From Pseudomonadota bacterium (GTDB taxonomy: Bacteria; Pseudomonadota; Alphaproteobacteria; Acetobacterales; Acetobacteraceae), in NCBI GenBank assembly GCA_021845595.1, contig JAJZVV010000002.1:186001-250000 (forward strand): 64,000 nt of DNA, in the 5' to 3' direction. Under the pieces are notes generated by a model. It was not told where the DNA came from and did no database searches. It was given only the letters and a program-made list of their open reading frames with translations. The position numbers were made by a program, and so were the translations under genes. Of the stretch, positions 11,401 through 63,283 are shown piece by piece; the first letter of the stretch is position 1; every line of letters starts with the position of its first letter.

Positions 11401-11412
11401 ATCATGTGGTTT

Positions 11413-44044: not shown

Positions 44045-45477
44045 TCGGCCCGGCGCTGGTGACGCTCGCCGCGCTGACATTGCTGCGCCTGGCGCTGGCC
44101 GCGGCCCTGCCGCTGTCGCCGGACGAAGCCTATTACTGGGTGTGGTCGCGGGCGCTGGCGGGCGGGTATCTCGACCACCCGCCGATGGTCGCGCTGCTGA
44201 TCCGCGCCGGCACGTCGCTGGTCGGCGAGAGCGAACTCGGCGTGCGGCTGGCCGCGCCGCTGGCGGCGGCGGCGGGGTCGCTGCTGCTGGCCAGCGCGGC
44301 GGAGGACCTCGCGCCGGGACGGCACGCCGGCCTGATCGCGGCGGCACTGCTCAACGCCTCGTTGCTGTTCGGCGCCGGCGCGGTGCTGATGACGCCGGAC
44401 ACGCCGCTGCTGCTGTTCTGGACCGCGACGCTGGCGGCCCTCGCGCGCGGCCTGCGCCGTGGCGACGGGCGCTGGTGGCTCGCCGCCGGGCTGGCCGCCG
44501 GCCTCGCGCTGGCGAGCAAGCTCACGGCGCTGCTGCTGCTCGCTGCCGTCGGGCTGTGGCTGCTCGCGCTGCCGGCGACGCGGCGGATGCTGGCCACTCG
44601 CTGGCCCTGGCTCGGCCTCGGCATCGCCGGGCTGGTCTTCGCGCCGACGCTGGCCTGGAACGCGGCCCATGGCTGGGCCGGCTTCGTCAAGCAGGGTGCA
44701 CGCGTCACCGCGTGGCAGCCGGCGCGGGCCGGGCAGTTCCTGGCCGAATTGCTGGCCGGGCAGATCGGACTCGCGACGCCGCTGGTGTTCCTGCTGTGCG
44801 CCGTCGGCACCGTGGCGGCGCTGCGCCGGGCGCGCACGGACGCGGCGGCGGCGCTGCTCGCGGCGAGCGTCGTGGTGCCGGGGCTGGTCTTCCTGGCCCA
44901 CGCGCTGGGTGACCGCGTCCAGGGGAACTGGCCCGCGGGGCTCTATCCCGGCGCGGCGCTCGCCGCGGCTGTCTTCGCCGGGCCGTCCTGGCGCCGGTGG
45001 TGGCGTCCGGCGGTGGTGCTGGGGCTGGCGATGACGGCGATCGTCTATGTCCAGGCCCTGGCGGCTCCGCTGACGCTGCCGGCCGGGCTCGATCCGAGCC
45101 TGCTGCGCCTCGCCGGCTGGCGGGATCTGGCCGCGGACATCGCGGCGGAACGGCAGCGGAGCGGTGCCGCCTATGTCGTGGCCGACAACTACGCCCTCGC
45201 GTCCATGCTCGCCTGGAGCCTTCCGGCGGATCAGCGCGTCGTCGGGATGGAGCCGCGTTGGCGGCTGTTCGCCCTGCCGGACGCCGCGCCGCTGCTGCGG
45301 GCGGGTCCGGGGCTGCTCGTGCGCAGCGCGCGCCGCGCCGCCGGCGACGGCGCCCCGGTCGCTGTTCTGACGCGGCGGCGCGGGGCATCGGTTGCGGAAG
45401 CGTATCGGCTGTTCCTGCTGCCCCCGGGCGTCGACCGCGCAACTGCGGCGCTGTTGCCGCAGCGGGTCGCGCGATGA
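44041..45477 (+). CDS. GT39-type polyprenyl-phosphate-sugar glycosyltransferase (ArnT/PMT-like)
   Basis: Multi-spanning inner-membrane transferase of 478 residues using a lipid-phosphate sugar donor. The periplasmic catalytic loop near the N-terminus contains LSPDEAYYWVWSR with the conserved Asp-Glu, followed by GGYLDHPPMVALLIRAG. About ten membrane segments follow, then a soluble C-terminal region. It begins at a GTG overlapping the donor-synthase stop (GTGA) and overlaps the DUF2147 start by four bases. The acceptor (lipid A, glycan or protein) is unknown. Confidence 0.85.
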   Translation: MIGPALVTLAALTLLRLALAAALPLSPDEAYYWVWSRALAGGYLDHPPMVALLIRAGTSLVGESELGVRLAAPLAAAAGSLLLASAAEDLAPGRHAGLIAAALLNASLLFGAGAVLMTPDTPLLLFWTATLAALARGLRRGDGRWWLAAGLAAGLALASKLTALLLLAAVGLWLLALPATRRMLATRWPWLGLGIAGLVFAPTLAWNAAHGWAGFVKQGARVTAWQPARAGQFLAELLAGQIGLATPLVFLLCAVGTVAALRRARTDAAAALLAASVVVPGLVFLAHALGDRVQGNWPAGLYPGAALAAAVFAGPSWRRWWRPAVVLGLAMTAIVYVQALAAPLTLPAGLDPSLLRLAGWRDLAADIAAERQRSGAAYVVADNYALASMLAWSLPADQRVVGMEPRWRLFALPDAAPLLRAGPGLLVRSARRAAGDGAPVAVLTRRRGASVAEAYRLFLLPPGVDRATAALLPQRVAR

Positions 45478-45911
45478 TCCGCCGGGCCGCCCTGCTGCTC
45501 CTGCTCGCCGCCGCCGCGCCGGTGCCGGACCCCAGCGGGCGCTGGCTGACGGAACGCGGCGATGGGGTGGTGGAGATCACACGATGCGGCGCTGCCCTGT
45601 GCGGGCGCATCGTTGGTGGACGGATCGCGCCGGGCGCATCGGACACCGGCCGCGACGTGCATGGCGCCCGGCTCTGTGGCCTGACGCTGTTCTCCGACAT
45701 GCGCCCCGACGAGGACGGTCCGGACCCTGGCGGACGCTGGCGCGGCCATGTCTATAATCCCCTCGACGGCAGGGTCTATGCCGCCCTCCTCACCATGCAG
45801 GGACCGGACCGGTTGCGGCTGCGCGGCTATATCGGCGTGCCCCTGTTCGGGGCGAGCGAAGTATGGACCCGCTTTACCGGAGCGTTGGACGCGGAGTGCC
45901 AGATGCGATGA
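45474..45911 (+). CDS. DUF2147-family secreted protein
   Basis: A 145-residue exported protein. A short signal peptide (MIRRAALLLLLAAAAP) leads to the DUF2147 core PSGRWLTERGDGVVEITRC, GALCGRIV-type, VYNPLDGRVYAALL and LRLRGYIGVPLFGASEVWTR. In the family, two cysteines near CGAALCG and the lipocalin-like barrel are typical; function is unknown. Its last codons and stop lie in the left copy of the 35-bp direct repeat bounding the inserted cassette, so the C-terminus AECQMR is the original one. Confidence 0.82.
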   Translation: MIRRAALLLLLAAAAPVPDPSGRWLTERGDGVVEITRCGAALCGRIVGGRIAPGASDTGRDVHGARLCGLTLFSDMRPDEDGPDPGGRWRGHVYNPLDGRVYAALLTMQGPDRLRLRGYIGVPLFGASEVWTRFTGALDAECQMR

Positions 45912-45927
45912 CCGCCCTCATCCCACC
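45893..45927 (+). repeat. Left copy of the 35-bp direct repeat bounding the cassette
   Basis: Begins GGAGTGCCAG and ends CATCCCACC, identical over 35 bases to 47002-47036; the flanking base differs on both sides (C against T before, A against G after). It includes the DUF2147 stop codon and the first seven codons of the downstream dehydratase frame. The distance between copies is 1,109 bp. Confidence 0.95.
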
Positions 45928-45934
45928 AACATAG
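45908..45934 (+). pseudogene. Truncated start of the threonine dehydratase frame left of the cassette
   Basis: ATG at 45908, overlapping the DUF2147 stop as ATGA, reads MTALIPPT and then stops at TAG 45932-45934. The first seven residues equal those of the intact dehydratase at 47017. This is the footprint of the ancestral coupled junction, cut off when the cassette entered. It might now act as a tiny leader peptide. Confidence 0.8.
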
Positions 45935-46136
45935 CGAGAATAGCGGCGATTGAGGCTGAGCCATCAAAAGTCCCGTTCGACCATGTTTTGCGTCGGCGCG
46001 AGCGCTGATGTGGCGCCTCAATGGGTTTCCAGCCATCTCGCAGGGGCTTTCGTTGGGCATCGGTTCCTGATAACGTCTCTGACTTAATGCAAACTGGCGG
46101 CCTTAATGATGGATAGGCTACACAGGGGAGGTTATT

Positions 46137-46298
46137 ATGAAAATCAGATCTATCGTTCGCAGAAACAAAAACGGAACAAGCCGCACAACAAAAATGAAAA
46201 TCGGCGCCACGACAACGACTAAGACTACAAAATTGGGAAGAACTACTACAACAGTATCAACGAAAATAAACAATCGAATATATAGTTCAAAATATTAA
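46137..46298 (+). CDS. 53-residue Thr/Lys/Arg-rich basic peptide, family unknown
   Basis: ATG at 46137 follows a strong AGGGGAGG site six bases upstream and reads 53 codons to TAA. The product starts MKIRSIVRRNKNGTSR, continues with threonine clusters (ATTTTKTTK, GRTTTTVSTK) and ends IYSSKY. It has roughly 16 threonines and about 15 lysines or arginines against no acidic residue. It contains no cysteine, no membrane segment and no recognised domain. Position directly ahead of the lipoprotein gene (45 bp) suggests a two-gene unit. It could bind nucleic acid or membrane, or be a small secreted factor; none is shown. Confidence 0.6.
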   Translation: MKIRSIVRRNKNGTSRTTKMKIGATTTTKTTKLGRTTTTVSTKINNRIYSSKY

Positions 46299-46343
46299 TG
46301 AGCTTCGCTCCGAAAAAATGCTCAGACGTATAACCTCGACAAT

Positions 46344-46970
46344 GTGAAGAGATTTGCTCGCGTGAAAGCATTTGTTGCATTACCAGTGCTATTAGCTATA
46401 GCGTTCATATTTTCTGGATGCTCGTTTCTTCTATCATACCACAACTTGACGTCCGAACAGAAAATAGCAAATTTGATTTTCGTTCCGGCCGATAGTAGCG
46501 ACAGCGATACAAAAAAAATGGAAATTATTTATCAAATAGATGCAATGAACTACAGAAAATTCCCATTGCGAGGTGGAGATGAATGGGAGATAGATTGCGT
46601 GATCGTTAAACCGAGATATCTATTAGAAGCAATCGGGATGTCGCCGCGATATAAAGTCGACAGAATTGTAACAAGATACAGAGATAAGGTAAAAGATTCT
46701 AAAGACTCAACAGATTTGATTGATTTATCAGAATATGCACAAGTCAATCAGCCACACCATAATATTCTCATGAGAATAATTAACGGGATAGGCAATATTA
46801 TATTTTGGTTATTCTTCGATGTAAGCTATGGAAGTGCCAATTATGCTCCAATCATAGGTGGAGCTTCCTTTGACATCTACATAACGCCAACTGGATTATT
46901 AACGAGGCCTGAGAACTCAGTCGCTCGTAACGCAATAGCAACCAAAAAATGGTGGCAGGAGTACAAATAA
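46344..46970 (+). CDS. Orphan lipoprotein of the AT-rich cassette
   Basis: A 208-residue protein with a lipoprotein signal: basic start (MKRFARVK), hydrophobic core and lipobox FSGC at cysteine 26, so it is probably lipid-anchored in the envelope. The mature part has MEIIYQIDAMNYRKFPL, EWEIDCVIVKPRYLLEAIGMS and a hydrophobic stretch near residue 150 (IINGIGNIIFWLFFD), and ends TKKWWQEYK. The start is a GTG at 46344; a GTG at 46362 would shorten the signal by six residues. Codon use (many AAA, AGA, TTA) differs sharply from the chromosome. I recognise no named family with confidence. Confidence 0.72.
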   Translation: MKRFARVKAFVALPVLLAIAFIFSGCSFLLSYHNLTSEQKIANLIFVPADSSDSDTKKMEIIYQIDAMNYRKFPLRGGDEWEIDCVIVKPRYLLEAIGMSPRYKVDRIVTRYRDKVKDSKDSTDLIDLSEYAQVNQPHHNILMRIINGIGNIIFWLFFDVSYGSANYAPIIGGASFDIYITPTGLLTRPENSVARNAIATKKWWQEYK

Positions 46971-47001
46971 TCGCGGTTCCTCTCTAATATGATATTGCCT
47001 T

Positions 47002-47036
47002 GGAGTGCCAGATGCGATGACCGCCCTCATCCCACC
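47002..47036 (+). repeat. Right copy of the 35-bp direct repeat bounding the cassette
   Basis: Identical to 45893-45927. It contains the start codon (ATG 47017) and first seven codons of the intact dehydratase gene and a remnant of the DUF2147 C-terminal codons, which are out of context here. Immediately upstream the cassette end reads TAATATGATATT, which could act as a -10 region for the dehydratase now separated from its former operon. Confidence 0.95.
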
Positions 47037-48000
47037 GAGTTTCGACACCGTCGCTGCCGCCGCCCGGCGCCTCGCCGGACGCATCGTGCGCACGCCGATG
47101 CTGCGCAATGAACGGCTGGACGCCCTGACCGGCGCGCGCGTCTTGGTCAAGCCGGAGCCGCTGCAGCGGACCGGCAGCTTCAAGCTCCGCGGCGCGACGA
47201 ACGCCCTGTTGCAACTGGCGCCCTCGGCGCGCGCCGAGGGGGTGCTCACCTATTCCTCGGGCAACCATGCGCAGGCGGTGGCGTGCGCGGCAGCGGCGGA
47301 AGGCGTGGCGGCGACCGTGTTCATGCCGTCCGACGCGCCGCGCATCAAACGCGAGAGCACCGAGCGCTGGGGCGCGCGGGTCGAGGTCTATGACCGCCTA
47401 ACCCAGAGCCGCGAAGACCTCGCCGCCGCCTTCGCCGCCGCCACCGGCGCCAGCCTCATCCCACCCTATGAGCACCCCGAGGTCATCGCCGGGCAGGGTA
47501 CTGCCGCGCTCGAACTGGCGGAGGACGCCGCCGCCGCCGGCCTCGCGATGGAGGCGCTGCTCGTGTGCACCGGCGGCGGCGGCCTGATCGCGGGCAGCGC
47601 CCTGGCGATGGAGGGGGCTTCGCCGGCGACGCGGGTCTATGCCGTCGAGCCCGAGGGCTGGGACGACACTGCCCGCTCGCTCGCCGCCGGCTCCCGCCTG
47701 GCCAACGGCCATGGCGGCTCGACCCTGTGCGATGCGCTGCTGGCGCCGACCCCCGGCGCGCTGACCTTCGCGCTCAACGCGCCACGACTGGCCGGCGGTT
47801 TCGCGGTCACCGACGACGAGGTGCTGAAGGCAATGGCGTTCGCCTTCCGCCATCTCAAGCTCGTCGTCGAACCGGGCGGAGCGGTGGCACTCGCCGCCTT
47901 GCTCGCCGGCCGGCTCGACGCGCGCGGGCGGGTGGTCGGCGTGGTGCTGAGCGGCGGCAATGTCGATCCAGCCATCTTCGGCCGCGCTCTGGCGTATTAG
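47017..48000 (+). CDS. Threonine/serine dehydratase (PLP-dependent)
   Basis: Deaminates L-threonine or L-serine to 2-oxobutyrate or pyruvate. The 327-residue, catalytic-domain-only enzyme carries the PLP lysine in GSFKLRGATN, the substrate loop SSGNHAQAVA and the phosphate-binding CTGGGGLIAG. There is no C-terminal ACT domain, so it is of the unregulated biodegradative/racemase-like type. The ATG at 47017 is the ancestral start (ATGA with the DUF2147 stop); a GTG at 47005 exists only because of the repeat. Serine racemase or a hydroxy-aspartate lyase are alternatives. Confidence 0.85.
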   Translation: MTALIPPSFDTVAAAARRLAGRIVRTPMLRNERLDALTGARVLVKPEPLQRTGSFKLRGATNALLQLAPSARAEGVLTYSSGNHAQAVACAAAAEGVAATVFMPSDAPRIKRESTERWGARVEVYDRLTQSREDLAAAFAAATGASLIPPYEHPEVIAGQGTAALELAEDAAAAGLAMEALLVCTGGGGLIAGSALAMEGASPATRVYAVEPEGWDDTARSLAAGSRLANGHGGSTLCDALLAPTPGALTFALNAPRLAGGFAVTDDEVLKAMAFAFRHLKLVVEPGGAVALAALLAGRLDARGRVVGVVLSGGNVDPAIFGRALAY

Positions 48001-52068: not shown

Positions 52069-53511
52069 CTACCCGAGCACGGGTGGACGACGCTGCCGCC
52101 ATGGCCGCGCGGCCTCGAAAGCGGCAGACGCGCGCAGCACCATCGGATCATCGAGATGCCGCCCGACGATCTGCATGCCGACCGGCAGACCATCGGCGGT
52201 CCAGCCCGCGGGAACGGTCGCCGCGGGCTGCCCGGTCATGTTCATCGGGAACGTGAAGGCCAGCCACTGGAAGGGCGCGACGATGCGCCCGTCGATCTTT
52301 TCCGGCCCCTGGACGTGGACCGGGAAAGGCGGCACCGCGAGCGTTGGTGTGAGCAGCAGGTCGTAACGCTCCATGAAGCGCCACATCCGATTGTTCACCG
52401 CCTTGCGGGTCATGACCGCGCCGGTGAGTTCCTCCGCGGTCCACGGGCGGCGGATGAAATCGAGCAGATGCGGCGTCATACGGTCGGCAAACCTGTCGGC
52501 AAGGGCACGCATGCCGGCGAGATCGGACTCGAGCGCGACGAGACCCCAGAAGGCCGGGTAGGGGTCCGTCCAGCCCGGATGGGCTTCCTCGACAATGCAG
52601 CCGAGATCACGCTCGAAGACGCGGGCCGCGTCGGCGACGATGGTGCGCACGCGCGGATCGACCGCCGCGTAGCCCCAGTCCAGCGAGAGCGCAACCCGCT
52701 TGCCCTTGAGATCGCCTTTCAAACACTCCATCCAATCGAACTCGGGGCCGGGCAAGGTATGACGGTCGCGCGGGTCAGGGCCCGAGCCGATGACGGACAG
52801 CATGAGCGCGGAATCGGCAACCGTCCGACTCATCGGGCCGATATGCTCGAGGCTCTCCCAACTCGATACGCCCGGATAGCGCTCGTCCTTGGTGCCGGGA
52901 TAGAGCGGCACCCGGCCCATCGATGCCTTCATGCCGAAGATGCCGCAATGCGCCGACGGAATCCGCACCGAGCCGCCGCCATCGCTGCCAATCGCGAACG
53001 GGCACATCCCGGCCGCGACGGCAGCGCCCGACCCGGCGCTCGATCCACCAGGCGTCATGTCCAGATTCCACGGATTGCGCGTGGTCTCGAACACCGGATT
53101 GTGGCCGACACCACTGTAGCCGAATTCGGGGACGTTGGTCTTGCCGAGGATGATCGCGTCAGCCGCCTTGAGGCGCTCGACCACGACGTCGTCCTCATCG
53201 GGAATGAAATTCTCGTACGCGAAGGAGCCGGAGACCGTGCGAATACCCTTCGTGCAAACGAGATCCTTGATCCCGACGGGCACGCCGGCCAGTGGACCGA
53301 CCGCCTCCCCGGCCGCGATCCGTTGTTCGAGCCGCCGCGCAGCCTCGCGCGCGAGGTCCGGTGTGGGCGTGCAGAAGGCGTGCAGCTTCGGCTCGAGCGC
53401 CTCCATGCGCGCGATATGCGCTTCCGTCACCGCAACGGGAGAGACTTGCCGCTCCCGCACCAGGCGCGCGGTCGTGATCGCGTCGAGCTCACAGAGTTCC
53501 ATATCCGCCAT
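52069..53511 (-). CDS. Amidase signature family enzyme
   Basis: Hydrolyses a carboxamide to acid and ammonia. The 480-residue enzyme has the amidase signature Ser-cisSer-Lys triad: lysine in GVPVGIKDLVCTKG and the serines in TPGGSSAGSGAAVAAGM...GSDGGGSVRIPSA. IIGKTNVPEFG-type and LAFTFPMNMTGQPAATVPAG segments also fit. The ATG at 53511 has GGGAGGCGA ahead. It is the last gene of a minus-strand operon with a hydrolase and an NCS1-type permease. Aryl amides, indole-acetamide or hydantoin products are possible substrates. Confidence 0.88.
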   Translation of the reverse strand: MADMELCELDAITTARLVRERQVSPVAVTEAHIARMEALEPKLHAFCTPTPDLAREAARRLEQRIAAGEAVGPLAGVPVGIKDLVCTKGIRTVSGSFAYENFIPDEDDVVVERLKAADAIILGKTNVPEFGYSGVGHNPVFETTRNPWNLDMTPGGSSAGSGAAVAAGMCPFAIGSDGGGSVRIPSAHCGIFGMKASMGRVPLYPGTKDERYPGVSSWESLEHIGPMSRTVADSALMLSVIGSGPDPRDRHTLPGPEFDWMECLKGDLKGKRVALSLDWGYAAVDPRVRTIVADAARVFERDLGCIVEEAHPGWTDPYPAFWGLVALESDLAGMRALADRFADRMTPHLLDFIRRPWTAEELTGAVMTRKAVNNRMWRFMERYDLLLTPTLAVPPFPVHVQGPEKIDGRIVAPFQWLAFTFPMNMTGQPAATVPAGWTADGLPVGMQIVGRHLDDPMVLRASAAFEAARPWRQRRPPVLG

Positions 53512-53567
53512 ATTCGCCTCCCTTCGATCGGGGGATACGGGCGGCCTCACGGCCGCCCGCCGTCCCT

Positions 53568-54590
53568 TCAGCTCGCAAGCAGTTCCTTGAGCTTGTCGTC
53601 GATGAACTTCACGTCCACCGGATTGGTCCCCGGCCCGCCGGCGAAGTGGCCCCAGATCGATGGCACCGGGATCAGCTTCGCGTTCGGCATGTTGGCAACC
53701 TCGAACTCGCTGTCCGCCGGCGGGAAGTAGAGATCGGTCGCGCCCGGCATCACATAGGCCCGGGCCTTGATGGCGCCGAGCGCCTTCCTGAAGTCGCCGT
53801 GATAGAGCTCGTTGTCGCTGATATCGCCGTGCTGCCACGTCCACAGCATGGTGAGCAGGTTGTTCGCGTCCTTGGGAAGGAAGAATCCCTCCCAGAATGC
53901 GACCAGGAAGTCCTCCAGCGACGAGTAGCCGAGCGTCTTGAGGTCGAGTTCCTCTCGATAGAATGATTGGGAGAATCCCCAGCCCGCATAGACTCTCGCC
54001 ATCGCGCGCAGGCCGATGTTGGGCTTCTCCGTGTACCACCCGCCGGCAAACGCTGCGTCCGCGGTGAGCGCGGCCTTGACGCCTTCGAGAAAGACGAAAT
54101 TGTGACGCGAGCATTTGGCAGAGCCGCAGAATGGTGCGATCCGCTCCACCATGTCTGGATAGAGCGCGCCCCAATGAAACGTCTGCAGCGCGCCCATCGA
54201 CCAGCCCGTCACCAAGCGAATGCGGCTGATGCCGAACTTCTCGGTCACCAGCCGGTGCTGCACGCGGACGTTGTCGCACGCAGTGATTTTGGGGAAGCGG
54301 GGGCCGTTATACGGCTCGGGGGTGTTGGACGGGGACGAGGAAAGGCCATTGCCGAGCATGTTGGGGATGATGATGAAGTACTTTGCCGGATCGAGCGCCA
54401 TCCCCGGGCCGACCAGCCACTCGTTCTCATAATGCTGGCCGGAATACCAGGTCGGGTAGACGATGACATTGTCCTTGGCCGCGTTCAGCGTGCCGAAGGT
54501 CTTGTAGGCGAGCCGGCAGCCGCGCAGTGTCGCGCCCCCTTGCAGCCGGACATCGCCGAGTTCGAAGATTTCGTAGTCCATGTCGATCAT
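53568..54590 (-). CDS. Homoserine O-acetyltransferase-like alpha/beta hydrolase
   Basis: A 340-residue alpha/beta hydrolase of the MetX-like group. GCRLAYKTFGTLNAAKDNVIVYPTW near the start, the nucleophile elbow VTGWSMGALQTF, an aspartate in PGATDLYFPP and a histidine in IWGHFAGG form the triad. True MetX has GGSMGG and a different lid, so this is probably a hydrolase or acyltransferase on another substrate. Lying between an NCS1 permease and an amidase, it may cleave an imported amide or ester; that is inference. Confidence 0.75.
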   Translation of the reverse strand: MIDMDYEIFELGDVRLQGGATLRGCRLAYKTFGTLNAAKDNVIVYPTWYSGQHYENEWLVGPGMALDPAKYFIIIPNMLGNGLSSSPSNTPEPYNGPRFPKITACDNVRVQHRLVTEKFGISRIRLVTGWSMGALQTFHWGALYPDMVERIAPFCGSAKCSRHNFVFLEGVKAALTADAAFAGGWYTEKPNIGLRAMARVYAGWGFSQSFYREELDLKTLGYSSLEDFLVAFWEGFFLPKDANNLLTMLWTWQHGDISDNELYHGDFRKALGAIKARAYVMPGATDLYFPPADSEFEVANMPNAKLIPVPSIWGHFAGGPGTNPVDVKFIDDKLKELLAS

Positions 54591-54639
54591 ATCCCTGTCA
54601 TTGTGGCGGGCCTGCAGGCGCGCCTGTGGACCGCGACGG

Positions 54640-55980
54640 TCAGGCGTAGCGGGGCGCGAGCCGCATCACGCGTGCGAGAATGCCGTAGGCGACACCAGCG
54701 ACGATAAAGGCCGAGAGCGCGGTTGAATATTCGGGCGCGGTTTCGCTGACGATGAAGGCGATGATGGAGCCGGCCGCCCAGGCGAGGAAAGCCGCAGGAC
54801 TCCACTCCACACTCGCCTCCGCGCCGGGGCGGACGATGTACTGATCGACCAGAATGATCGCGCCGATCGGCGGCACCAGGACGCCCAGCAGCGTCAGCCA
54901 CTGGATGAAAAACGCCCAGACATTGCCCGCGGCGACGATGATGCCGATGGCTCCGAGGACGATGGCCAGCAGCCGCATATGGCTGCCCATGATTCGCGAC
55001 CAGCCGGTGGCCGCATTGTACAGGCAGTGCGAGCAGACGGAGCCGAGATTGAAGTAAAGGAAGAGGAAGGCGAGACCGCTCAGCCACGCCGTCTCCTTGG
55101 TGTTCAGGTAGCCGAACATGTTGTCGGCGCCGAAGGGGTTCTGGTCCGGTGTGGCGAGAGCCGCGGTTGTGATGCCGCCCACGAGCATCGCGGCGAGGTT
55201 GGCGAACGGGAACGCACTGAAGGTGGAAATCAGCGAGCTGGCGCTATCCTTTGCCCAGCGGTTGAAATCGGCGGTGACGGTTCCCGCGTCGACGAACAAT
55301 GTCAGGACGATGGTGAGACCGACGCCCATCGGCATCGAAGCCTGGCCGTGATTGCCGGCGTAGGAGAGGACCGCATCCCAGCCATGGGCGGCGACCGCAT
55401 CGGCGGCGACGTAGACCCCCAGAAGCACGAAGAGCGGCACCGAGACGAGGCCGATATAATGCAGGCCGCGCACGCCGACGAACGTGATGGCGATGTAGAG
55501 CAGGCCCGCGATGACGGTCATCATCACGTAGTTCAGATGGTACGTGCTGGCGACTAGGTTTCCGGTGATCCCGGTCTGCACCGCATACCAGCCGAGGAGC
55601 AAGGTCGAGAGAAGGCCCGAGGCGAAGACATACCCTTTGCGTCCGAAGACGATGCTGGCGAGGAGCGCGAAATTCAGCCCCCGCCGAGTTCCAAGGACGC
55701 CGAGCGCCCCGACATAGGCGAACATCAGCAGATTGCCGATGATCATGGCGGCCAGCGCGCGCTGGAATCCCATGCCAAGCACGAGAACGGAACCGGTCAT
55801 CGCGCCGGTGATGATCATGGGAAAGCCGATCCAGACCATGGTCACGGAAAAAAGGCTCCGCCGGGCGCTGATCGGCACCGGCAGATGTTCGTATTCTTCG
55901 CCGAGGACATGATCGATCTGGTTTTCGACGACTTCGACCTCGGCGCGCACGGAGTGCCCGTGCGGGTCATGCTGACTCAT
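54640..55980 (-). CDS. NCS1-family purine/cytosine (nucleobase or amide) permease
   Basis: Inner-membrane cation symporter of 446 residues with about 12 hydrophobic segments. The N-terminal LPVPISARRSLFSVTMVWIGFPMIITG is typical of CodB/allantoin-type NCS1 transporters, and FVDAGTVTADFNRWAKD matches the helix-6 region. The ATG at 55980 has an AGGAG site. It is first in the operon with the hydrolase and amidase, so it probably imports their substrate, for example a pyrimidine, hydantoin or cyclic amide. Confidence 0.85.
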   Translation of the reverse strand: MSQHDPHGHSVRAEVEVVENQIDHVLGEEYEHLPVPISARRSLFSVTMVWIGFPMIITGAMTGSVLVLGMGFQRALAAMIIGNLLMFAYVGALGVLGTRRGLNFALLASIVFGRKGYVFASGLLSTLLLGWYAVQTGITGNLVASTYHLNYVMMTVIAGLLYIAITFVGVRGLHYIGLVSVPLFVLLGVYVAADAVAAHGWDAVLSYAGNHGQASMPMGVGLTIVLTLFVDAGTVTADFNRWAKDSASSLISTFSAFPFANLAAMLVGGITTAALATPDQNPFGADNMFGYLNTKETAWLSGLAFLFLYFNLGSVCSHCLYNAATGWSRIMGSHMRLLAIVLGAIGIIVAAGNVWAFFIQWLTLLGVLVPPIGAIILVDQYIVRPGAEASVEWSPAAFLAWAAGSIIAFIVSETAPEYSTALSAFIVAGVAYGILARVMRLAPRYA

Positions 55981-56551
55981 GAAGAACTCCTGGTGTGTAG
56001 GATGGGGAGTGCAATTGCCCGCGCGCAATGGCAGGTGGCTGTAAGGCGCAAACACAGGGCCCGGCGGACGGTTCCCAGGACCATTTGGCGCGTACACTGG
56101 ACGGGCGACGCTGCCCGCCGGCGGGTCACGGCGAGGTGCCGGACCGCGATCAGACCCATAGACTACCGCCTCTTGGTCATGCCAGCAAGTTCACAAACTC
56201 GTGAATGGACTCCCGATGCCCCCAGGGCGGCCATTGAGCGCGCGAATAATAGGCATTGAAGGCCGATCGCCGGCATGATAGACCGAATTGCGCGGAAAAT
56301 ATGCAACTCAACAGCCGCTTTCCCTGCGCGGCAGGCGTATCGCCGGCTTCGGACGGCCAGCGGCAAAGGCGAGGGTGCGGCGACGGGGGTGATCAGCGGC
56401 TCGATGCGCAATCTGCGGGGGTGGGTCCGATGCGACGGTGGCATGGGCGGCGGCTGTGGTCTTGCTCCAGCCGACCGGCCGGGCGATAAACCGTCACGCG
56501 TCGGATGCAAGGGTACGACGACGGTACCTACCCCGACGACAGGAGGATGCG
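55981..56551. other. Divergent control region between the permease operon and amiC
   Basis: A 571-bp gap containing the promoters for both arms of the amide locus. On the minus strand a strong hairpin with hexaloop AGCGTC lies at 56119-56100 within the permease leader. On the plus strand AGGAGG at 56541 serves amiC, and GGTAC/GTACC pair around 56514-56532. No convincing coding region is present and no clear -35/-10 pair could be assigned. Confidence 0.4.
56100..56119 (-). promoter_or_regulatory. Candidate ANTAR-target hairpin upstream of the permease operon
   Basis: Read on the minus strand, GGCGGGC (56119-56113) pairs with GCCCGTC (56106-56100), with one G-T pair, around the six-base loop AGCGTC. 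ANTAR proteins bind hairpins whose hexaloops have A at position 1 and G at position 4, both true here, and the loop equals that in the leader after amiR. I could not find a convincing second hairpin or terminator following it, so this is tentative. Confidence 0.4.
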
Positions 56552-57703
56552 ATGGCTCGAACGAGTGATCGCCGCGATGATGCATGGCGCGTGGGCGTTC
56601 TGTTCTCGCACAGCGGGTTCATGGCGATCATCGAGGAGACGCAGCTTCGCGGGACGTTGCTGGCGATCGACGAGATCAACGCCGCCGGCGGCGTCAACGG
56701 CCGTGAACTTGTCCCCGTCATCTACGATCCCGGCTCCGAGCCCGTCGTGTTCGGCCAGCTCGCCAAACGATTGATGGTGGACGATGCCATCAGCACCATC
56801 TTCGGTTGTTATACGTCGAGCAGCCGAAAGGCGGTCATTCCGGTGGTGGAGCGGCTCAACGGGCTGCTCTGGTACCCAACCCTCTACGAAGGGTTCGAGT
56901 TTTCCCCGAACGTCATCTATACGGGTGCGGCGCCGAACCAGAACAGCGTCGTGCTCTCGCGTTATTTGATGGAGAATTTCGGTCCTCGCATCTTCTTCGT
57001 CGGCTCGGATTATATCTATCCGCGCGAATCGAACCGGATCATGGCGGAGCTGGTGCGCCGACAGGGTGGAGACGTCGTCGGCGAAGTCTACGTGCCATTG
57101 CGCGCGCAGAGATCGGATTTCCGGTCCGCCATGCGTCTGATCAAGGCGGCCCGGCCGGACGCGATCTTCTCCACTGTCGTCGGCGACGGGACGGTCTATC
57201 TCTACCAGTCCTATTTCGATGCAGGGTTCGATTCCGCAAACATGCCGATCGCGAGCCTCACCACTACCGAGGCCGAAATTCGTGCCATGGGGTTCGATGT
57301 CGGGAAGGGACACATCACCGCAGCGTCCTATTTCCAGAATATTGGCGGGTCGTGCAATGAACGGTTCGTCTCCCGATACCAGAAGCGGTACGGCGCGGAC
57401 GAGCCCACCAATGCGTGTGTCGAAGCGGCTTATTTCCAGGTCCATGTTTTCGCCAAAGCGCTGGAGAGCACGAACTCCATGGCGACGGACGTGCTGCGTA
57501 CCATGGTTCTCGGAACGGAGTACGAGGCGCCACAGGGCGCGATCAGTATCAACGAGACATCCAACCACGCCGATCTCTGGACGCGGATCGGTCGGGTCAA
57601 CCGATGCGGGCAGTTCGACGTTGTCCTGCAGTCCCAGGATGTGGTGCCCGCCGACCCGTACATGGTCGGGGCCGGTTGGGGTCTTGCGGCAGGGTTGACG
57701 TGA
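56552..57703 (+). CDS. amiC: Amide-sensing negative regulator AmiC (periplasmic-binding fold, cytoplasmic)
   Basis: Ligand-sensing partner of AmiR: without amide it holds AmiR inactive, with amide it releases it. The 383-residue protein has the type I periplasmic-binding fold (VGVLFSHSGFMAIIEETQLRGTLLAI, FGCYTSSSRKAVIPVVE, LLWYPTLYEG) but no signal peptide, as expected for a cytoplasmic sensor. AGGAGG precedes the ATG. amiR follows 3 bp later. It resembles the true binding protein two genes downstream, a typical paralogue pair. Confidence 0.9.
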   Translation: MARTSDRRDDAWRVGVLFSHSGFMAIIEETQLRGTLLAIDEINAAGGVNGRELVPVIYDPGSEPVVFGQLAKRLMVDDAISTIFGCYTSSSRKAVIPVVERLNGLLWYPTLYEGFEFSPNVIYTGAAPNQNSVVLSRYLMENFGPRIFFVGSDYIYPRESNRIMAELVRRQGGDVVGEVYVPLRAQRSDFRSAMRLIKAARPDAIFSTVVGDGTVYLYQSYFDAGFDSANMPIASLTTTEAEIRAMGFDVGKGHITAASYFQNIGGSCNERFVSRYQKRYGADEPTNACVEAAYFQVHVFAKALESTNSMATDVLRTMVLGTEYEAPQGAISINETSNHADLWTRIGRVNRCGQFDVVLQSQDVVPADPYMVGAGWGLAAGLT

Positions 57704-57706
57704 ACG

Positions 57707-58336
57707 ATGGTGCTCTCCGGCTCTGACCGACGGACCGCGGGCGGAACGGGTGGCGAGGCTTCGTCGCTGCGCGGCGAACTGGCGCGGCTCGACATTCTCG
57801 TTGCCGTTCCGGGCGACGAGTCCGGCATCTTCCTGATCCGCGAGCTGCAGCGCACGCGCGCCACCGTACGCCATCTCTGGCCCTTACCGGAGACACTGCC
57901 GGAGAGTGCGGACGTGATCTTCAGTGATCTGACGGATGGACTCTCCGCGCGGCTTGCGTGGGTGCCCGGTTGTGCAAAGTCGGCCCTGGTCGGCATATTG
58001 CCGGCGCAGTTCGAGGGAGACCTGGACCTTCTCCGCACGCTGGCGGTGGATGCGGTGCTGCATCGCCCATTCACGGCGCGCGCCGTGCTGACGAGCCTGG
58101 TGATGGCCTGGACGCGGTTTGGCTATGAGCGCCGCCTGCGGCAGCGCATCGCGAAGCTGGATGAGACCTTGCGCTCGGTCCGCATCGTCGAGCGCGCCAA
58201 GGCGATTCTGATCACCGGCCGGAAGCTCAGCGAGGACGATGCCTATCGTTTCATGCAGCGCCAGGCGATGGATCGGCGCGTGCCGATTGCCGCGATCGCG
58301 ACAGCGATCATTGACTCCCAGCGGATGCTCGGCTAA
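57707..58336 (+). CDS. amiR: ANTAR-domain transcription antitermination regulator AmiR
   Basis: RNA-binding antiterminator of 209 residues. The N-terminal pseudo-receiver domain (LARLDILVAVPGDESGIFLIRELQ) lacks a phosphorylation aspartate pattern. A coiled coil (ERRLRQRIAKLDETLRSVRIVER) joins it to the three-helix ANTAR domain AKAILITGRKLSEDDAYRFMQRQAM. It is expected to bind the hairpin leader that begins 26 bp after its stop and to prevent termination ahead of the transporter and amiE genes when AmiC is relieved by amide. Confidence 0.92.
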   Translation: MVLSGSDRRTAGGTGGEASSLRGELARLDILVAVPGDESGIFLIRELQRTRATVRHLWPLPETLPESADVIFSDLTDGLSARLAWVPGCAKSALVGILPAQFEGDLDLLRTLAVDAVLHRPFTARAVLTSLVMAWTRFGYERRLRQRIAKLDETLRSVRIVERAKAILITGRKLSEDDAYRFMQRQAMDRRVPIAAIATAIIDSQRMLG

Positions 58337-58362
58337 CCATCCCTGCTAGGTTGCTTGCAACC

Positions 58363-58438
58363 GACGGCAGCGTCGCCGTCTGAAACAGTGGCAGTTTCGC
58401 CCCCGCTGGGGCCCCATTGGGGCCGCTCGGGGGCTTTT
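58363..58438 (+). promoter_or_regulatory. ANTAR-responsive leader with intrinsic terminator
   Basis: Hairpin 1: GACGGC (58363-58368) and GCCGTC (58375-58380) close the hexaloop AGCGTC, with the A1 and G4 that ANTAR proteins require. Hairpin 2: GAAAC (58382-58386) and GTTTC (58394-58398) around AGTGGCA, whose first six bases also have A1 and G4. One base on, GCCCCCG (58399-58405) pairs with CGGGGGC (58428-58434) and is followed by TTTT, an intrinsic terminator. The order amiR, tandem hairpins, terminator, transporter is the expected antitermination layout. Confidence 0.8.
58399..58438 (+). terminator. Intrinsic terminator controlled by AmiR
   Basis: A 7-bp GC stem (GCCCCCG/CGGGGGC) with an inner GGCCCC/GGGGCC helix and a short T-run ends immediately before the transporter ribosome site. 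It abuts hairpin 2 of the ANTAR leader, so stabilising that hairpin should disfavour terminator formation. It lies 16 bp ahead of the substrate-binding protein start. Confidence 0.8.
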
Positions 58439-58454
58439 GCGTTTGGGAGGCTTC

Positions 58455-59711
58455 ATGGCACAATTCTCAAGGCGCGGCGTCGTCAAAGGCGTCGCGGGGC
58501 TGGCCGGCGCTGCGACATTCGGATTTCCGCAGATCTGGATCAAGAACTCCGGTCTGGCGCGTGCGGCGGGTGGCGAGATCAAGGTCGGCGTGCTGTACTC
58601 GCTGACAGGGACGACGGCGATCATCGAGACGTCGCTCAACCAGGCGACGCTGATGGCGATCGAAGAAATCAATGCGGCCGGCGGGGTCAACGGCCGCAAG
58701 CTGGTTCCGGTCGTGGAGGATCCTGCGTCCGATCCGGCGACGTTCGCCGAAAAGGCGCGGAAGCTGGTGATCGGCGAGAAGTGCGTGAGCGTGTTCGGTT
58801 CATACACGTCCGCCAGCCGCAAGGCGGTGTTGCCGATATTCGAACGCTACCACAATCTCTACTGGTATCCCACCCTCTACGAGGGTCGGGAATGCTCCAT
58901 GAACGTCATCTACACCGGTGCGGTGCCCAACCAGCAGCAGCGCGACTTCGTCCCGTGGCTCGTGAAGAATTTCGGCAAGCGGTTCTATCTGATCGGATCG
59001 AATTACATCTATCCGAAGGAGGAGAACAACGTCTGCAAAATTCTGCTCCAGAAGCTCGGCGGCGAGGTCGTCGGCGAGGAATATGTGCCGCTGGGGCACT
59101 CCGAGTTCAGCTCCGTAATCGAGAAATTCAAGAATACGAAGCCGAACGTGATCTTTTCGACCGTCGTCGGGGACTCGGTGGTGGCGCTCCATCGGCAATA
59201 TAAGGCCGCCGGGCTCGATCCCGCGAAAATGCCGATGGCCAGCCTGACGACCTCCGAGGAAGAAGTGCGCGCGATGGGCGGTGAATTTGCCCTCGGTCAC
59301 TTCACCTCGGCGCCCTACTTCATGTCGTACGAGTCACCGGAGAACGCGAAGTTCGTCGCCGCCATCCAGAGCAAATACGGGAAAAACGCGGTGACGAATT
59401 TCGTGTCCGAGCCGGCGTATTTCCAGGTCCACTTGTTCGCTCAGGCGGCGGCGAAGCTTGCCGGGTCCGACCTGACCCCTCCCACCATCCGCGAGGCGGC
59501 GTGGGGCCAGGAATACAAGGCGCCCGAAGGGCTGGTGAAGATCGACGGGCAGAATTCCCATACCTATCTGTGGCCGAAGATCGGCGAGGCGCAGATGAAT
59601 GGGCAGTTCAAGATCATCGAGCAATCCAAGGAGTGGGTCGAGCCGGATCCCTATTGGGCGTACCCCGGCCAGGTCTGCACGCCCAAGGGCATGGTGGAGA
59701 AGAAAGCCTGA
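58455..59711 (+). CDS. Amide/urea ABC transporter substrate-binding protein (FmdD/UrtA-like)
   Basis: Periplasmic binding protein of 418 residues for short-chain amides or urea. The N-terminus SRRGVVKGVAGLAGAATF is a twin-arginine type signal, then the type I fold starts at IKVGVLYSLTGTTAIIETSL with VEDPASDPATFAEKARKL, FGSYTSASRKAVLP and WYPTLYEGRE, typical of the UrtA/FmdD group. GGGAGG precedes the ATG. It is the first gene behind the AmiR-controlled terminator, and amide rather than urea is favoured by the linked amiE. Confidence 0.9.
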   Translation: MAQFSRRGVVKGVAGLAGAATFGFPQIWIKNSGLARAAGGEIKVGVLYSLTGTTAIIETSLNQATLMAIEEINAAGGVNGRKLVPVVEDPASDPATFAEKARKLVIGEKCVSVFGSYTSASRKAVLPIFERYHNLYWYPTLYEGRECSMNVIYTGAVPNQQQRDFVPWLVKNFGKRFYLIGSNYIYPKEENNVCKILLQKLGGEVVGEEYVPLGHSEFSSVIEKFKNTKPNVIFSTVVGDSVVALHRQYKAAGLDPAKMPMASLTTSEEEVRAMGGEFALGHFTSAPYFMSYESPENAKFVAAIQSKYGKNAVTNFVSEPAYFQVHLFAQAAAKLAGSDLTPPTIREAAWGQEYKAPEGLVKIDGQNSHTYLWPKIGEAQMNGQFKIIEQSKEWVEPDPYWAYPGQVCTPKGMVEKKA

Positions 59712-59769
59712 GCAGGCTTGACGGGCGGCGGCGGACCTCGGTCCGTCGCCGTCAACGCGAGGACCATGC

Positions 59770-60642
59770 ATGACGGATATCTTCAACCAGGTTTTTTCGG
59801 GCCTCAGCATCGCCTCGATTCTGCTGCTGATATCGCTCGGCTTGGCGATCATCTACGGCACTGTCGGGGTCATCAACCTGGCGCATGGCGAGTTTGTGAT
59901 GCTCGGGGCCTACGCAGTGTGGTTCCTGGAAGACCATTTTGGATTAGGGCTGTTTCCCTGCATCGTGCTGGCGTTTTTCGCGGTCGGCACGCTGGGTTGG
60001 GTGGTCGAACGACTGATCATTCGCCGGCTCTATGGGCGGGTGTTGGACACGATCCTGGCGACGTGGGGTCTTGGCGTCATCCTTCAGCAGGCAATCCGAC
60101 TGAGCGCAGGGGCCGAGCTGCGATATGTGCAGATGCCGCCCGGCCTCAGCGCCGCGGTCCATTTCGCCGGGGTCGACGTGTCGGCTTACCGGCTGTTCGT
60201 GCTGGCTCTGACCGCCATTCTCCTGGCCGTCACCTACGTGCTGATCTTCCGCACCCGCTTCGGGATGCGTCTGCGCGGCGTGGTGCAGAACCCGGAGATC
60301 GCCCGGTGCTTCGGCGTGAACACCTCGCAGATCTATGCGATGACGTTCGCGTATGGCGCCGGCCTCGCCGGTATCGCCGGCGCGCTGGTCTCGCCACTCA
60401 AGAGCGTCTCGCCGGACATGGGCACGGGCTATGTCGTTGATGCGTTCATGGTGGTCGTGGTCGGCGGCGTCCAAAGCCTTCTCGGCACGGTCGCGAGCGC
60501 GGGGATCATTGGGGAGTTGTCCGGTGGGCTTGCCTATCTCTCGAACGATACGATCGCCAAGGCCATCGTTTTCCTTGGCGTGGTGGTGCTGATCCGCTTC
60601 CGGCCGCAAGGCCTGTTCGCCCTCCGCGTGCGGCGAGGCTGA
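59770..60642 (+). CDS. Urt/Liv-type ABC transporter permease 1 (UrtB/LivH family)
   Basis: Inner-membrane permease of 290 residues with about eight hydrophobic segments. ASILLLISLGLAIIYGTVGVINLAHGEFVMLGAY at the start and MRLRGVVQNPEIARCFGVNTSQIYAM in the cytoplasmic loop are family hallmarks, with GGVQSLLGTVASAGIIGEL following. It is shorter than urea-specific UrtB proteins that carry a long N-terminal domain, consistent with a short-chain amide importer. It starts 58 bp after the binding-protein gene. Confidence 0.88.
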   Translation: MTDIFNQVFSGLSIASILLLISLGLAIIYGTVGVINLAHGEFVMLGAYAVWFLEDHFGLGLFPCIVLAFFAVGTLGWVVERLIIRRLYGRVLDTILATWGLGVILQQAIRLSAGAELRYVQMPPGLSAAVHFAGVDVSAYRLFVLALTAILLAVTYVLIFRTRFGMRLRGVVQNPEIARCFGVNTSQIYAMTFAYGAGLAGIAGALVSPLKSVSPDMGTGYVVDAFMVVVVGGVQSLLGTVASAGIIGELSGGLAYLSNDTIAKAIVFLGVVVLIRFRPQGLFALRVRRG

Positions 60643-60644
60643 CG

Positions 60645-61766
60645 ATGGAGGGACAGCACAAGCACCCGATCTGGGCCAAACTCGTCGGCTACGCGGCCTT
60701 CTGCGTCGTCATCCTGATTCTTCCGCTGTTCATCACCGATGATTACCTGCTCAACAAACTCGCCCGGTATCTCGTGTTCGGCCTGGTCGCGATGGCCTTG
60801 TCGATCTCATGGGGGTACGCTGGCATCCTCAATCTTGGCCAGGCCGTGAGCTTTGGCCTGGGCTCCTACTGCATGGCGATGGCGCTGAAGCTCCGCACCA
60901 TTCCGATCCAGACCGGGGCCGAGGGCCTGCCCGACTTCATGGTCTGGAACAACGTGAAGTCGCTGCCGTGGTTCTGGGAGCCGTTCCACTCCTACGGCTT
61001 CGCGATCGCGGCAGGCGTGCTGGTGCCAACGATCCTGGCGTTGCTGATCGGCACCTTCGTCTTCCGCGCCAGGGTCACGGGCGTGTATGTCTCGATCATC
61101 ACGCTTGCGCTGCTCGTCGTGATCAACCTCGTCGTCATCGACCGCCAACGCCTGACCGGGGGCTTCAACGGGCTCACGGACCTGGCACCGCTTGAACTCT
61201 TCGGGCTGACATTCGATCCCTACGCGCACGCGACCTACTATCTCATCGCTGTGTCGCTCGGAGCGGCGCTGTTTCTCGGTCTTGCGGTCGTGCACAGCAA
61301 GACCGGCCTGATCATGCAGGCGATCCGTGACGATGAGAACCGGGTCCGCTATTTCGGCTACGACGTCGCCGCGTATCAGACTTTTGCGCTGTGTCTTTCC
61401 GCAGCGGTCGCCGGCTTCGCCGGAATGCTCTACACCTTGGTGATGGCGTTCGCGTCGCCGACATTCCTTGCCGTCCCCGTCAGTCTCTCGATCGTGATCT
61501 GGTCCGCGGTCGGTGGCCGCGCGTCGCTGCTCGGATCGGCGATGGGGGCGATCATCGTCACCGGCGTGCAAGGGAGCTTGTCGGACACACCGGCCTTTCT
61601 GGAGACCTGGACGCTCATCATGGGCGCGCTGTTCATCATCGTCGTTCTGTTCCTGCCGCGCGGACTGATCAGTCTGGTGGATCGAATTCCCCTTGGCGGC
61701 AGCGCGCGGCGCCGCGCCGCGGCGGCAACGGGTGCAGCCAGCAGGAGCGGCATCAATGCCGGCTAG
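60645..61766 (+). CDS. Urt/Liv-type ABC transporter permease 2 (UrtC/LivM family)
   Basis: Second permease subunit of 373 residues. ALSISWGYAGILNLGQAVSFGLGSYCMAMALKL and VIDRQRLTGGFNGLTDL are the UrtC/LivM signatures, and MQAIRDDENRVRYFGYDVA is the ATPase-contact loop. The C-terminal tail is basic and Ala/Arg-rich. It starts 2 bp after the first permease gene and overlaps the ATPase gene by 11 bp, indicating tight co-translation. Confidence 0.88.
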   Translation: MEGQHKHPIWAKLVGYAAFCVVILILPLFITDDYLLNKLARYLVFGLVAMALSISWGYAGILNLGQAVSFGLGSYCMAMALKLRTIPIQTGAEGLPDFMVWNNVKSLPWFWEPFHSYGFAIAAGVLVPTILALLIGTFVFRARVTGVYVSIITLALLVVINLVVIDRQRLTGGFNGLTDLAPLELFGLTFDPYAHATYYLIAVSLGAALFLGLAVVHSKTGLIMQAIRDDENRVRYFGYDVAAYQTFALCLSAAVAGFAGMLYTLVMAFASPTFLAVPVSLSIVIWSAVGGRASLLGSAMGAIIVTGVQGSLSDTPAFLETWTLIMGALFIIVVLFLPRGLISLVDRIPLGGSARRRAAAATGAASRSGINAG

Positions 61767-62532
61767 GGCAGTGGCCACGACCGGGGCGATTCTCGAGCTG
61801 CGGGACATCACCGTCGAGTTCGCGGGGTTCGTCGCCATAGCCGGGCTGACCCTGGACGTGCATGAAGGCGAATTGCGCTGTCTCATCGGGCCGAACGGTG
61901 CCGGAAAAACGACGGCGCTGGATGTCATTTGCGGGAAGGTGAAGCCGGCGTCCGGCAAGGTCGTGCTCGGCGGCCGGGAGATCACGCGCCTCGAGGAGCA
62001 CCAGATCGCGCGGCACGGGGTCGGGCGGAAATTCCAGGTACCGAGTGTATTCCGGGACCTCACGGTGCGGCAGAACATGGAAGTGGCGTTGTGCCGTGCA
62101 CCCGGTGTGCTGGGCAATCTGTTCCGGTTCGGCAATTCCGGCGCCAGCGAACAGCTGGAGAAGCTGGCCGAACTCGTCGGGCTCGAGGAGGCGATGGATG
62201 TCGCGGCCGGCGCGCTATCGCACGGCCAGACGCAGTGGCTGGAGATCGCGCTGCTCCTCGCGCAGGACGCACGGCTGATCCTGATGGACGAGCCGACGGC
62301 GGGAATGACGGCCCATGAAACGGCGAAGACCGCGGAGCTGTTCAACAGGCTCAAGGGCAGACACACGCTCATCGTGGTCGAGCACGACATGGGGTTCATC
62401 AAGGAGATCAGCGACATCATCTCGGTGATGCACCAGGGCCGCCTTCTTGCCGAAGGCACCGTGCGAGAGATCGAGACGAACGCGGAGGTTCGGGCGGCGT
62501 ATCTGGGTTCGGGAGGGATCAGCGGTGCTTGA
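61756..62532 (+). CDS. Urt/Liv-type ABC transporter ATPase 1 (UrtD/LivG family)
   Basis: Nucleotide-binding subunit of 258 residues. Walker A is GPNGAGKTT, the signature region reads LSHGQTQWLEIALLLAQ, as usual for UrtD (LSHGQ), Walker B is LILMDEPTAGM and the H-loop lies in VVEHDMGF. The ATG at 61756 with GGAG ahead starts the protein shortly before the conserved core; an in-frame start 63 bases upstream is less likely. It overlaps the second ATPase gene by 8 bp. Confidence 0.9.
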   Translation: MPARAVATTGAILELRDITVEFAGFVAIAGLTLDVHEGELRCLIGPNGAGKTTALDVICGKVKPASGKVVLGGREITRLEEHQIARHGVGRKFQVPSVFRDLTVRQNMEVALCRAPGVLGNLFRFGNSGASEQLEKLAELVGLEEAMDVAAGALSHGQTQWLEIALLLAQDARLILMDEPTAGMTAHETAKTAELFNRLKGRHTLIVVEHDMGFIKEISDIISVMHQGRLLAEGTVREIETNAEVRAAYLGSGGISGA

Positions 62533-63220
62533 GCTGGCTTCGGTGGATGCGTTCTATGGCAACATTCGCGCGCTGCAGGACGTCAGCCTCTCGGTCGATG
62601 CTGGCGAGTTCCTGGCCGTTCTCGGCCGCAACGGCGTCGGGAAAACGACGCTGATGCGCGCGATCCTGGGCCTGATGGACCGGACGACCGGCAGCATTCG
62701 CCTGGACTCACAGGAGATCGGGCGTTGGCGGACCGATCAGCGCGCGCGCGCAGGCATCGCCTATGTGCCGCAAGGGCGCGGTATTCTGCCGCGATTTTCC
62801 GTGCTCGATAATCTGCGGTTCGGATTGTTTGCGAACACCAAGGGACGACGCGAGATCGATGAAGGGGTGTTCGAGTTCTTCCCCGCGCTGCGCGAGCACC
62901 TCTCGCGGCTGGGCGGCAACCTGTCGGGCGGCCAGCAGCAGCAGCTCGCCATTGCGCGGGCGCTGATGGTTGAGCCGAAGGTGATGCTCCTCGACGAGCC
63001 GACGGAGGGCATCCAGCCGAACATTGTCGAGGAGATCGAGCACATCATCTCGCGGATCAATGCCGAGCGCGGCATCACCGTGATTCTCGTCGAGCAGAGC
63101 GTGAGCTTCGCGCGACGGGCAGCGCGGCGGTTCGTCATCATGAACAAGGGAAGCGTGGCTGCCGCGGGACCGACGGCGGAGCTCGATGATGGGCTCGTTC
63201 ATCGGTACATGGCGGTTTGA
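62525..63220 (+). CDS. Urt/Liv-type ABC transporter ATPase 2 (UrtE/LivF family)
   Basis: Second nucleotide-binding subunit, 231 residues, starting at a GTG inside the previous gene. Walker A GRNGVGKTT, YVPQGRGILPRFSVLDNL, signature LSGGQQQQLAIARAL, Walker B MLLDEPTEGIQPN and EQSVSFARRAARRF follow the UrtE pattern closely. It completes the five-gene importer; amiE starts 63 bp later. Confidence 0.91.
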   Translation: MLELASVDAFYGNIRALQDVSLSVDAGEFLAVLGRNGVGKTTLMRAILGLMDRTTGSIRLDSQEIGRWRTDQRARAGIAYVPQGRGILPRFSVLDNLRFGLFANTKGRREIDEGVFEFFPALREHLSRLGGNLSGGQQQQLAIARALMVEPKVMLLDEPTEGIQPNIVEEIEHIISRINAERGITVILVEQSVSFARRAARRFVIMNKGSVAAAGPTAELDDGLVHRYMAV

Positions 63221-63283
63221 GAGTGCCGGTCAGCCGCGCCGCGCCCTGACCAAAGCGACTTTGTCTTAACCAGGAGGAGTGTG

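What the first reader, a model, noticed from the sequence alone, without database searches (positions are those of the whole stretch)
45893..47036. Small AT-rich cassette split a coupled gene pair and left a perfect 35-bp direct repeat
The DUF2147 gene and the threonine dehydratase gene would share an ATGA stop/start junction. A 1,109-bp block now separates them, and 35 bp across that junction occur on both sides, so both genes remain complete. The left copy even leaves a stump frame (MTALIPPT, stop). The block carries two foreign-looking genes and no recombinase. A 35-bp duplication is far too long for ordinary transposition and sits on a gene junction, not a tRNA. This points to an unrecognised integration route for accessory gene pairs: a circle integrated by a trans-acting recombinase, or capture through microhomology.
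Basis: partly seen in the sequence, partly recalled or inferred. Interest (0 to 1): 0.85.

Follow-up and report, generated by a model that had tools for sequence, protein, structure and literature searches.

The report
Foreign gene islet with 35-bp duplication
A small piece of foreign DNA carrying two genes slipped between two neighbouring bacterial genes and duplicated 35 letters of the junction, so both neighbours survived; it is real, but most likely a one-off repair accident rather than a new integration machine.

Summary
A perfect 35-bp direct repeat (45893-45927 and 47002-47036) brackets 1,074 bp of 41% GC DNA in a 69% GC window. It is the longest exact direct repeat in the window (next: 19 bp). 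A sister species holds the empty site: DUF2147 and threonine dehydratase overlapping at ATGA, with one copy of the repeat (30 of 35 identical). Both window copies share the 5 letters that differ from the sister, so host sequence was duplicated when the DNA came in. The insert has two small genes; I found no recombinase, terminal inverted repeats, dif-like site or known family. What looks like the same gene pair (second gene 37% identical) lies in one other genome of the family. There it replaced an intergenic region and has no long flanking repeat. So the 35-bp repeat does not belong to the module, and a dedicated integration route for such pairs is not supported. Searches for Ku and Cas1 in the genome found nothing. 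Best reading: a one-off illegitimate capture of horizontally acquired DNA with a 35-bp target duplication (template switching, or fill-in of a staggered break). An unseen trans-acting recombinase or long-duplication transposase stays possible.

The parts
45474..45911 (+). DUF2147 gene (145 aa), left neighbour, complete; its last 19 nt lie in the left repeat copy
   Evidence: PF09917 E 6.8e-24
45893..45927 (+). left copy of the 35-bp direct repeat (holds the ATGA stop/start overlap 45908-45911)
45908..45934 (+). stump frame MTALIPPT-stop, left by the duplicated start codon
   Evidence: read from the sequence
45928..47001 (+). inserted DNA, 1,074 bp, 41% GC (first 193 bp 54%, the rest 38%)
   Evidence: absent from the sister site
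46137..46298 (+). ORF1, 53 aa, Thr/Lys/Arg-rich, Shine-Dalgarno-like AGGGGAGG upstream; no known family; a small counterpart (39% over the aligned residues of a 36-aa piece, weak because short and biased) beside the ORF2 homologue in G297/L070
46344..46970 (+). ORF2, 208 aa, hydrophobic N-terminus with a lipobox-like FSGC (motif recalled); 37% identical to a 184-aa protein in G297/L070, 23-25% to three others
47002..47036 (+). right copy of the 35-bp direct repeat; supplies GGAG, 11 nt and the ATG of the downstream gene
47017..48000 (+). threonine dehydratase-like PLP enzyme gene (327 aa), right neighbour, complete
   Evidence: PF00291 E 1.5e-66

Best explanation
A horizontally acquired 1.07-kb fragment holding a two-gene module was captured once, by illegitimate recombination, at the DUF2147/threonine dehydratase junction. 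Shown: insertion into an ATGA-coupled pair that is intact in a sister species, with 35 bp of this lineage's own junction sequence duplicated and no target base lost. Inferred: the duplication arose either when a replication or repair polymerase left the junction, copied the foreign fragment and resumed 35 bp upstream of where it had left (template switching), or when a break with about 35-nt protruding strands was joined to the fragment and both overhangs were filled in. Because the duplicated 35 bp span the stop codon, the start codon and the GGAG ahead of it, both genes kept their ends and the insertion could persist. No dedicated recombinase is needed.
For: Empty site with one copy in G001. 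Both copies share the 5 of 35 positions in which this lineage differs from G001, as expected if host sequence was copied rather than brought in. No terminal inverted repeats beyond chance: best score 8, reached by 121 of 1,000 shuffles. No dif-like site: 7 of 22 matches, reached by 93.7% of 1,000 window 35-mers (one published dif used). The other copy of the module has no long repeat at its borders, so the module carries no evident integration signal. Insert DNA is in none of the other 396 of 397 family genomes; neither its DNA nor its ORF2 protein was found in the plasmid and phage collections. A second low-GC islet in this genome (C28:115351-116800) also has no flanking exact repeat of 18 bp or more. 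Template switching by limited homology is proposed for E. coli (PMC5542668, passages). Repair of breaks with 46-nt protruding strands duplicates protruding sequence in mouse cells (PMC5730883, passages).
Against: No bacterial precedent with this exact outcome appeared in the titles and abstracts listed by my searches. Such duplications in mouse cells depended on Ku80 and Lig4, and this genome gave no Ku match, which weakens the fill-in variant. Microhomology at the joins cannot be seen because it would be hidden inside the repeat. A clean insertion with no lost target base, exactly across a gene junction, is also what site-specific integration would give. One occurrence cannot establish a mechanism.
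Confidence: 0.58

Rival explanations
1. Site-specific integration of a circle by a tyrosine recombinase acting in trans (or a larger element whose integrase was later lost); the 35 bp would be attL and attR.
For: Repeat length and a core spanning a gene end look like att sites; the genome has 12 tyrosine recombinase matches. The repeat holds an imperfect palindrome TGCGATGA-CCGCCC-TCATCCCA.
Against: The palindrome is not rare: 7.7% of 1,000 window 35-mers do as well. Near the ten recombinase loci read, the best match to the repeat is 19-21 of 35, inside the 18-23 of 90 control stretches of C28. No exact match to its 24-bp core in viral contigs and none to the 35 bp in plasmids; phages were not searched for it. 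An attP would have to match all 35 bp of this lineage's junction, including 5 positions not shared by its sister.
Confidence: 0.2
2. Transposition in trans by a transposase that makes very long target duplications (as in the IS1202 group), the insert being a transposase-less passenger.
For: Long duplications of 16-28 bp exist in the IS1202 group (PMC10132070, passages).
Against: 35 bp is beyond that range; members have terminal inverted repeats (24-26 bp, TGT ends, in the Acinetobacter members; abstract), not seen here. No second copy in the genome. The G297 copy of the module has no comparable duplication.
Confidence: 0.1
3. Assembly artefact, or an excised circle threaded into the contig by the assembler.
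For: Draft assembly of 50 contigs; no reads were available. An assembler could thread a free circle with one 35-bp copy into the chromosome path (inference).
Against: Both insert/repeat junctions must exist in real DNA for such a path (inference); the contig is collinear with G001 on both sides of the site.
Confidence: 0.06

Closest known systems
Illegitimate capture of foreign DNA (template switching / MMBIR, or end joining with fill-in)
   Same: Unique foreign insert, no recombinase found, target duplicated by tens of bp, no target loss
   Different: The duplications of this length that I read about are from mouse cells; bacterial captures known to me (recalled) usually delete rather than duplicate target
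Minimal mobile element of Neisseria (PMC3898611, passages)
   Same: Whole-gene cassette between two conserved genes; the G297 copy of the module fits this pattern
   Different: Such elements are exchanged by recombination in the flanks (recalled) and no target duplication is part of the definition; here the target was duplicated
IS1202-group insertion sequences (PMC10132070, passages)
   Same: Unusually long target duplication
   Different: 16-28 bp rather than 35; have transposase and terminal inverted repeats, not found here
Integrase-mediated genomic islands / integrative mobilizable elements (recalled)
   Same: Direct repeats at both ends, gene ends kept
   Different: No integrase found, 1.1 kb only, core not found elsewhere in the searches made

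Membership tests
Tyrosine-recombinase integrative element | recombinase gene in the element | tested here: not met
   two ORFs, no Pfam/NCBIfam match at E 1
Tyrosine-recombinase integrative element | att core shared with other copies or with loci of the recombinases in the genome | tested here: not met
   ten recombinase loci (of 12 matches) scanned: 19-21 of 35 against 18-23 in 90 controls; no exact 24-bp core in viral contigs, no 35-bp match in plasmids
Tyrosine-recombinase integrative element | excised circle | not testable with these tools
   no reads, no bench
Xer/dif module | dif-like 11-6-11 site in the repeat | tested here: not met
   7 of 22 matches to one published dif (row of PMC10132070); 93.7% of 1,000 control 35-mers reach that. 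The genome's own dif was not located
IS / transposon (incl. IS1202 group) | terminal inverted repeats | tested here: not met
   best score 8, not at the very ends, reached by 121 of 1,000 shuffles
IS / transposon (incl. IS1202 group) | multiple copies with constant duplication length | tested here: not met
   single copy in own genome; none in the other 396 of 397 family genomes
Ku-dependent end joining | Ku present in the genome | tested here: not met
   PF02735: 0 matches, genome 97.26% complete; the control rang in 1 of 14 genomes
Cas1-type integration | Cas1 in the genome | tested here: not met
   PF01867: 0 matches; the control rang in 9 of 14 genomes
Illegitimate capture | unique event with arbitrary ends and local target duplication | tested here: inconclusive
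   consistent in the features examined, but one event cannot prove it
Minimal mobile element | different gene content between the same two conserved genes in relatives | tested here: inconclusive
   filled in G000, empty in G001; among 100 genomes (own included) the DUF2147 half matched strongly only in these two

The most novel reading that the evidence does not exclude
An unrecognised recombinase or repair pathway in these bacteria inserts small recombinase-less gene pairs at gene junctions and duplicates about 35 bp of local sequence, so that both neighbours always survive.
Probability: 0.07. Interest if true: 0.75.

Novelty: new member of a known kind. Interest (0 to 1): 0.3.

Why it matters
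If it is what it seems, it is a clean trace of recombinase-free gene acquisition in a bacterium with no Ku match, with the empty site known: a useful example of how new genes enter operons without breaking them. It does not show a new machine. It would matter more if sister strains gave further duplications of constant length.

Tried and rejected
Looked for relatives of the insert: ORF2 protein in viral contigs, genome contigs, plasmids and phages; ORF1 in viral contigs and plasmids; the G297 ORF2 in plasmids; the insert DNA in plasmids and phages. None gave a relative. The G297 ORF2 searched in 396 family genomes matched only G297 itself; G000 is not among the rows shown there. The two-row profile A3 found only L070, which is the G297 contig (same length, same ORFs).

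Rfam on 45700-47300: nothing at E 1. The DNA fold of the left end is no better than shuffles (z 0.61), so no sign of an attC-like hairpin. Promoter-like sites: 6 against 2.3 (sd 1.6) in shuffles, terminator-like 2 against 1.3; not used. The ORF2 structure model is poor (pLDDT 54.9, pTM 0.50) and was not searched. PDB by profile A2 gave nothing better than E 0.37; Pfam on the five A2 members one match at E 0.016 (CfaA_B_C, one member), NCBIfam none.

The 12-bp CCTCATCCCACC at the end of each repeat recurs at 47454-47465. I considered a templated patch, but 136 of 63,988 window 12-mers have a copy within 430 bp, so for the 24 12-mers of the repeat this is about a 5% coincidence (my estimate).

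Import of the insert together with its flanks from another strain: 150-bp identity steps against G001 run 0.81-0.97 on both sides with no break at the site.

Small Thr-rich ORF within 600 bp upstream of the more distant ORF2 homologues: not seen in G168, G181, G063; not examined in the four further homologues.

The ten control windows were forward strand only; one search repeats the test on both strands with 90 controls. Neither changed the reading or the odds.

Full report
Observation. The 35-bp repeat GGAGTGCCAGATGCGATGACCGCCCTCATCCCACC is present exactly at 45893-45927 and 47002-47036. It is the longest exact direct repeat in the window; the next is 19 bp and an independent-base estimate for 35 bp is about 3e-10. 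Between the copies lie 1,074 bp of 41% GC in a 69% GC window. In the 278,553-bp contig this is the only place where 500-bp windows fall under 50% GC. The DUF2147 gene ends at 45911 inside the left copy; the threonine dehydratase-like gene starts at 47017 inside the right copy. Both have strong family matches. The stump frame MTALIPPT-stop is there (45908-45934).

Empty site. One search covered 100 genomes, own included, with 45475-48000. Besides the window's own, only same-genus genome G001 matched both halves of the site strongly (89% each), side by side on contig C177 with a 27-bp overlap of the two matches, i.e. one copy. The match list was cut, but it is ordered by E-value. Aligned, G001 reads straight through DUF2147 and the ATGA overlap into the dehydratase, with no insert. 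Its single copy differs from the window's copies at 5 of 35 positions, all in the last 13, and both window copies carry the same letters there. So 35 bp of this lineage's own junction were duplicated, most simply after the split from G001. G002, the other genome of the genus, matched this query only weakly (best E 1.1e-6).

What was inserted. ORF1 (46137-46298, 53 aa) is Thr-, Lys- and Arg-rich. ORF2 (46344-46970, 208 aa) has a hydrophobic start with a lipobox-like FSGC (motif recalled). Neither matched Pfam or NCBIfam at E 1. The insert DNA was found in 1 of 397 family genomes, its own, and not in plasmids or phages. ORF2 had a relative in 4 of 195 genomes including its own and in 2 of 397 family genomes including its own. 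With profile A2 it had one in 8 of 385 class genomes, of which four (own, G063, G168, G181) are members of the profile, so four are new. It is a thinly spread family in these samples. I did not establish what it does; an envelope-anchored protein is my inference.

The second copy of the module. In G297 (the same contig as MAG contig JAJZBM010000013.1, L070) a 37% identical ORF2 follows a small ORF that is 39% identical to ORF1 over the aligned residues. The ORF1 match is short and compositionally biased, so I take it as likely, not proven, that this is the same gene pair. It lies between an aldehyde dehydrogenase-like and a glutathione reductase-like gene (names from reading, no family search). 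Of the five other genomes of that genus, three (G260, G104, G213) matched both sides, with 126, 190 and 177 bp between the matches where G297 has about 860. The alignment to the sisters ends within a few bases of the stop codon and resumes at or a few bases past the next start codon. No long direct repeat flanks it; the pairs listed near the borders are short and imperfect. The pair appears to travel, but the 35-bp duplication is not a constant part of how it travels.

Tests of mechanisms. Tyrosine recombinase: 12 matches in the genome. I scanned ten loci with up to 1.5 kb on each side; the best matches to the repeat are 19-21 of 35, inside the 18-23 of 90 control stretches (a first, smaller control gave 19-20 and three loci at 21). 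Xer: no resemblance to one published dif; the genome's own dif was not located. Transposase: no terminal inverted repeats beyond chance, single copy. Ku and Cas1: no match in the genome; the control panel rang in 1 of 14 genomes for Ku and in 9 of 14 for Cas1. Other repeat-flanked foreign DNA: in 674.5 kb read, no second low-GC stretch is bracketed by an exact repeat of 18 bp or more at 150-8,000 bp spacing (55 of 63 C18 rows come from one tandem array at 176-179.5 kb and were set aside). A second low-GC islet (C28:115351-116800) has none.

Reading. The data show a single insertion of foreign DNA with 35 bp of target duplicated and none lost. It can be explained without a recombinase: template switching with resumption 35 bp upstream, or fill-in of a staggered break. 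The first is proposed for E. coli stress-induced rearrangement (PMC5542668, passages), and bacterial tandem duplication by illegitimate recombination is described in PMC11111574 (passages). The second is shown in mouse cells for 46-nt overhangs but needed Ku80 and Lig4 there (PMC5730883, passages), so with no Ku match here I favour template switching. That the duplication spans a stop, a start and a GGAG explains why both neighbours survived; selection among many events would favour such survivors, so the neat position needs no targeting. A recombinase acting in trans cannot be excluded with one occurrence and no reads.

Literature. I ran 9 library searches. None of the titles and abstracts listed described a ~35-bp duplication around a recombinase-less gene pair in bacteria; I read passages of five papers only, so this is no claim that none exists. 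Verdict: observation confirmed, interpretation partly supported, interest modest.

Noticed in passing
window 52069-64000: Identity to G001 rises from about 85-89% to 95.5% to the right of about 52.1 kb, suggesting a recombined block. At its border G001 carries an extra 115 bp of hairpin-pair element (TAGAGCA...TGCTCTA) with a 14-bp overlap of the flanks; an 82% identical element lies at window 11327-11465.
   Followed up: partly
G000:C32:1417-3795 (L081-L083): Three tyrosine recombinase matches in a row, like a recombinase-in-trio (RIT) element (name recalled); two more side by side on C33.
   Followed up: no
G000:C28:115351-116800 (L106:15351-16800): A second low-GC islet with a 311-aa ORF, at a place where G001 and G002 have other lengths of DNA between the same flanks; no flanking exact repeat of 18 bp or more.
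   Followed up: partly
window 47454-47465: The last 12 bp of the 35-bp repeat recur inside the dehydratase gene 429 bp downstream of their place in the right copy; probably chance.
   Followed up: yes
G000:C18:176460-179000: A tandem array of 519-bp units with long exact repeats.
   Followed up: no
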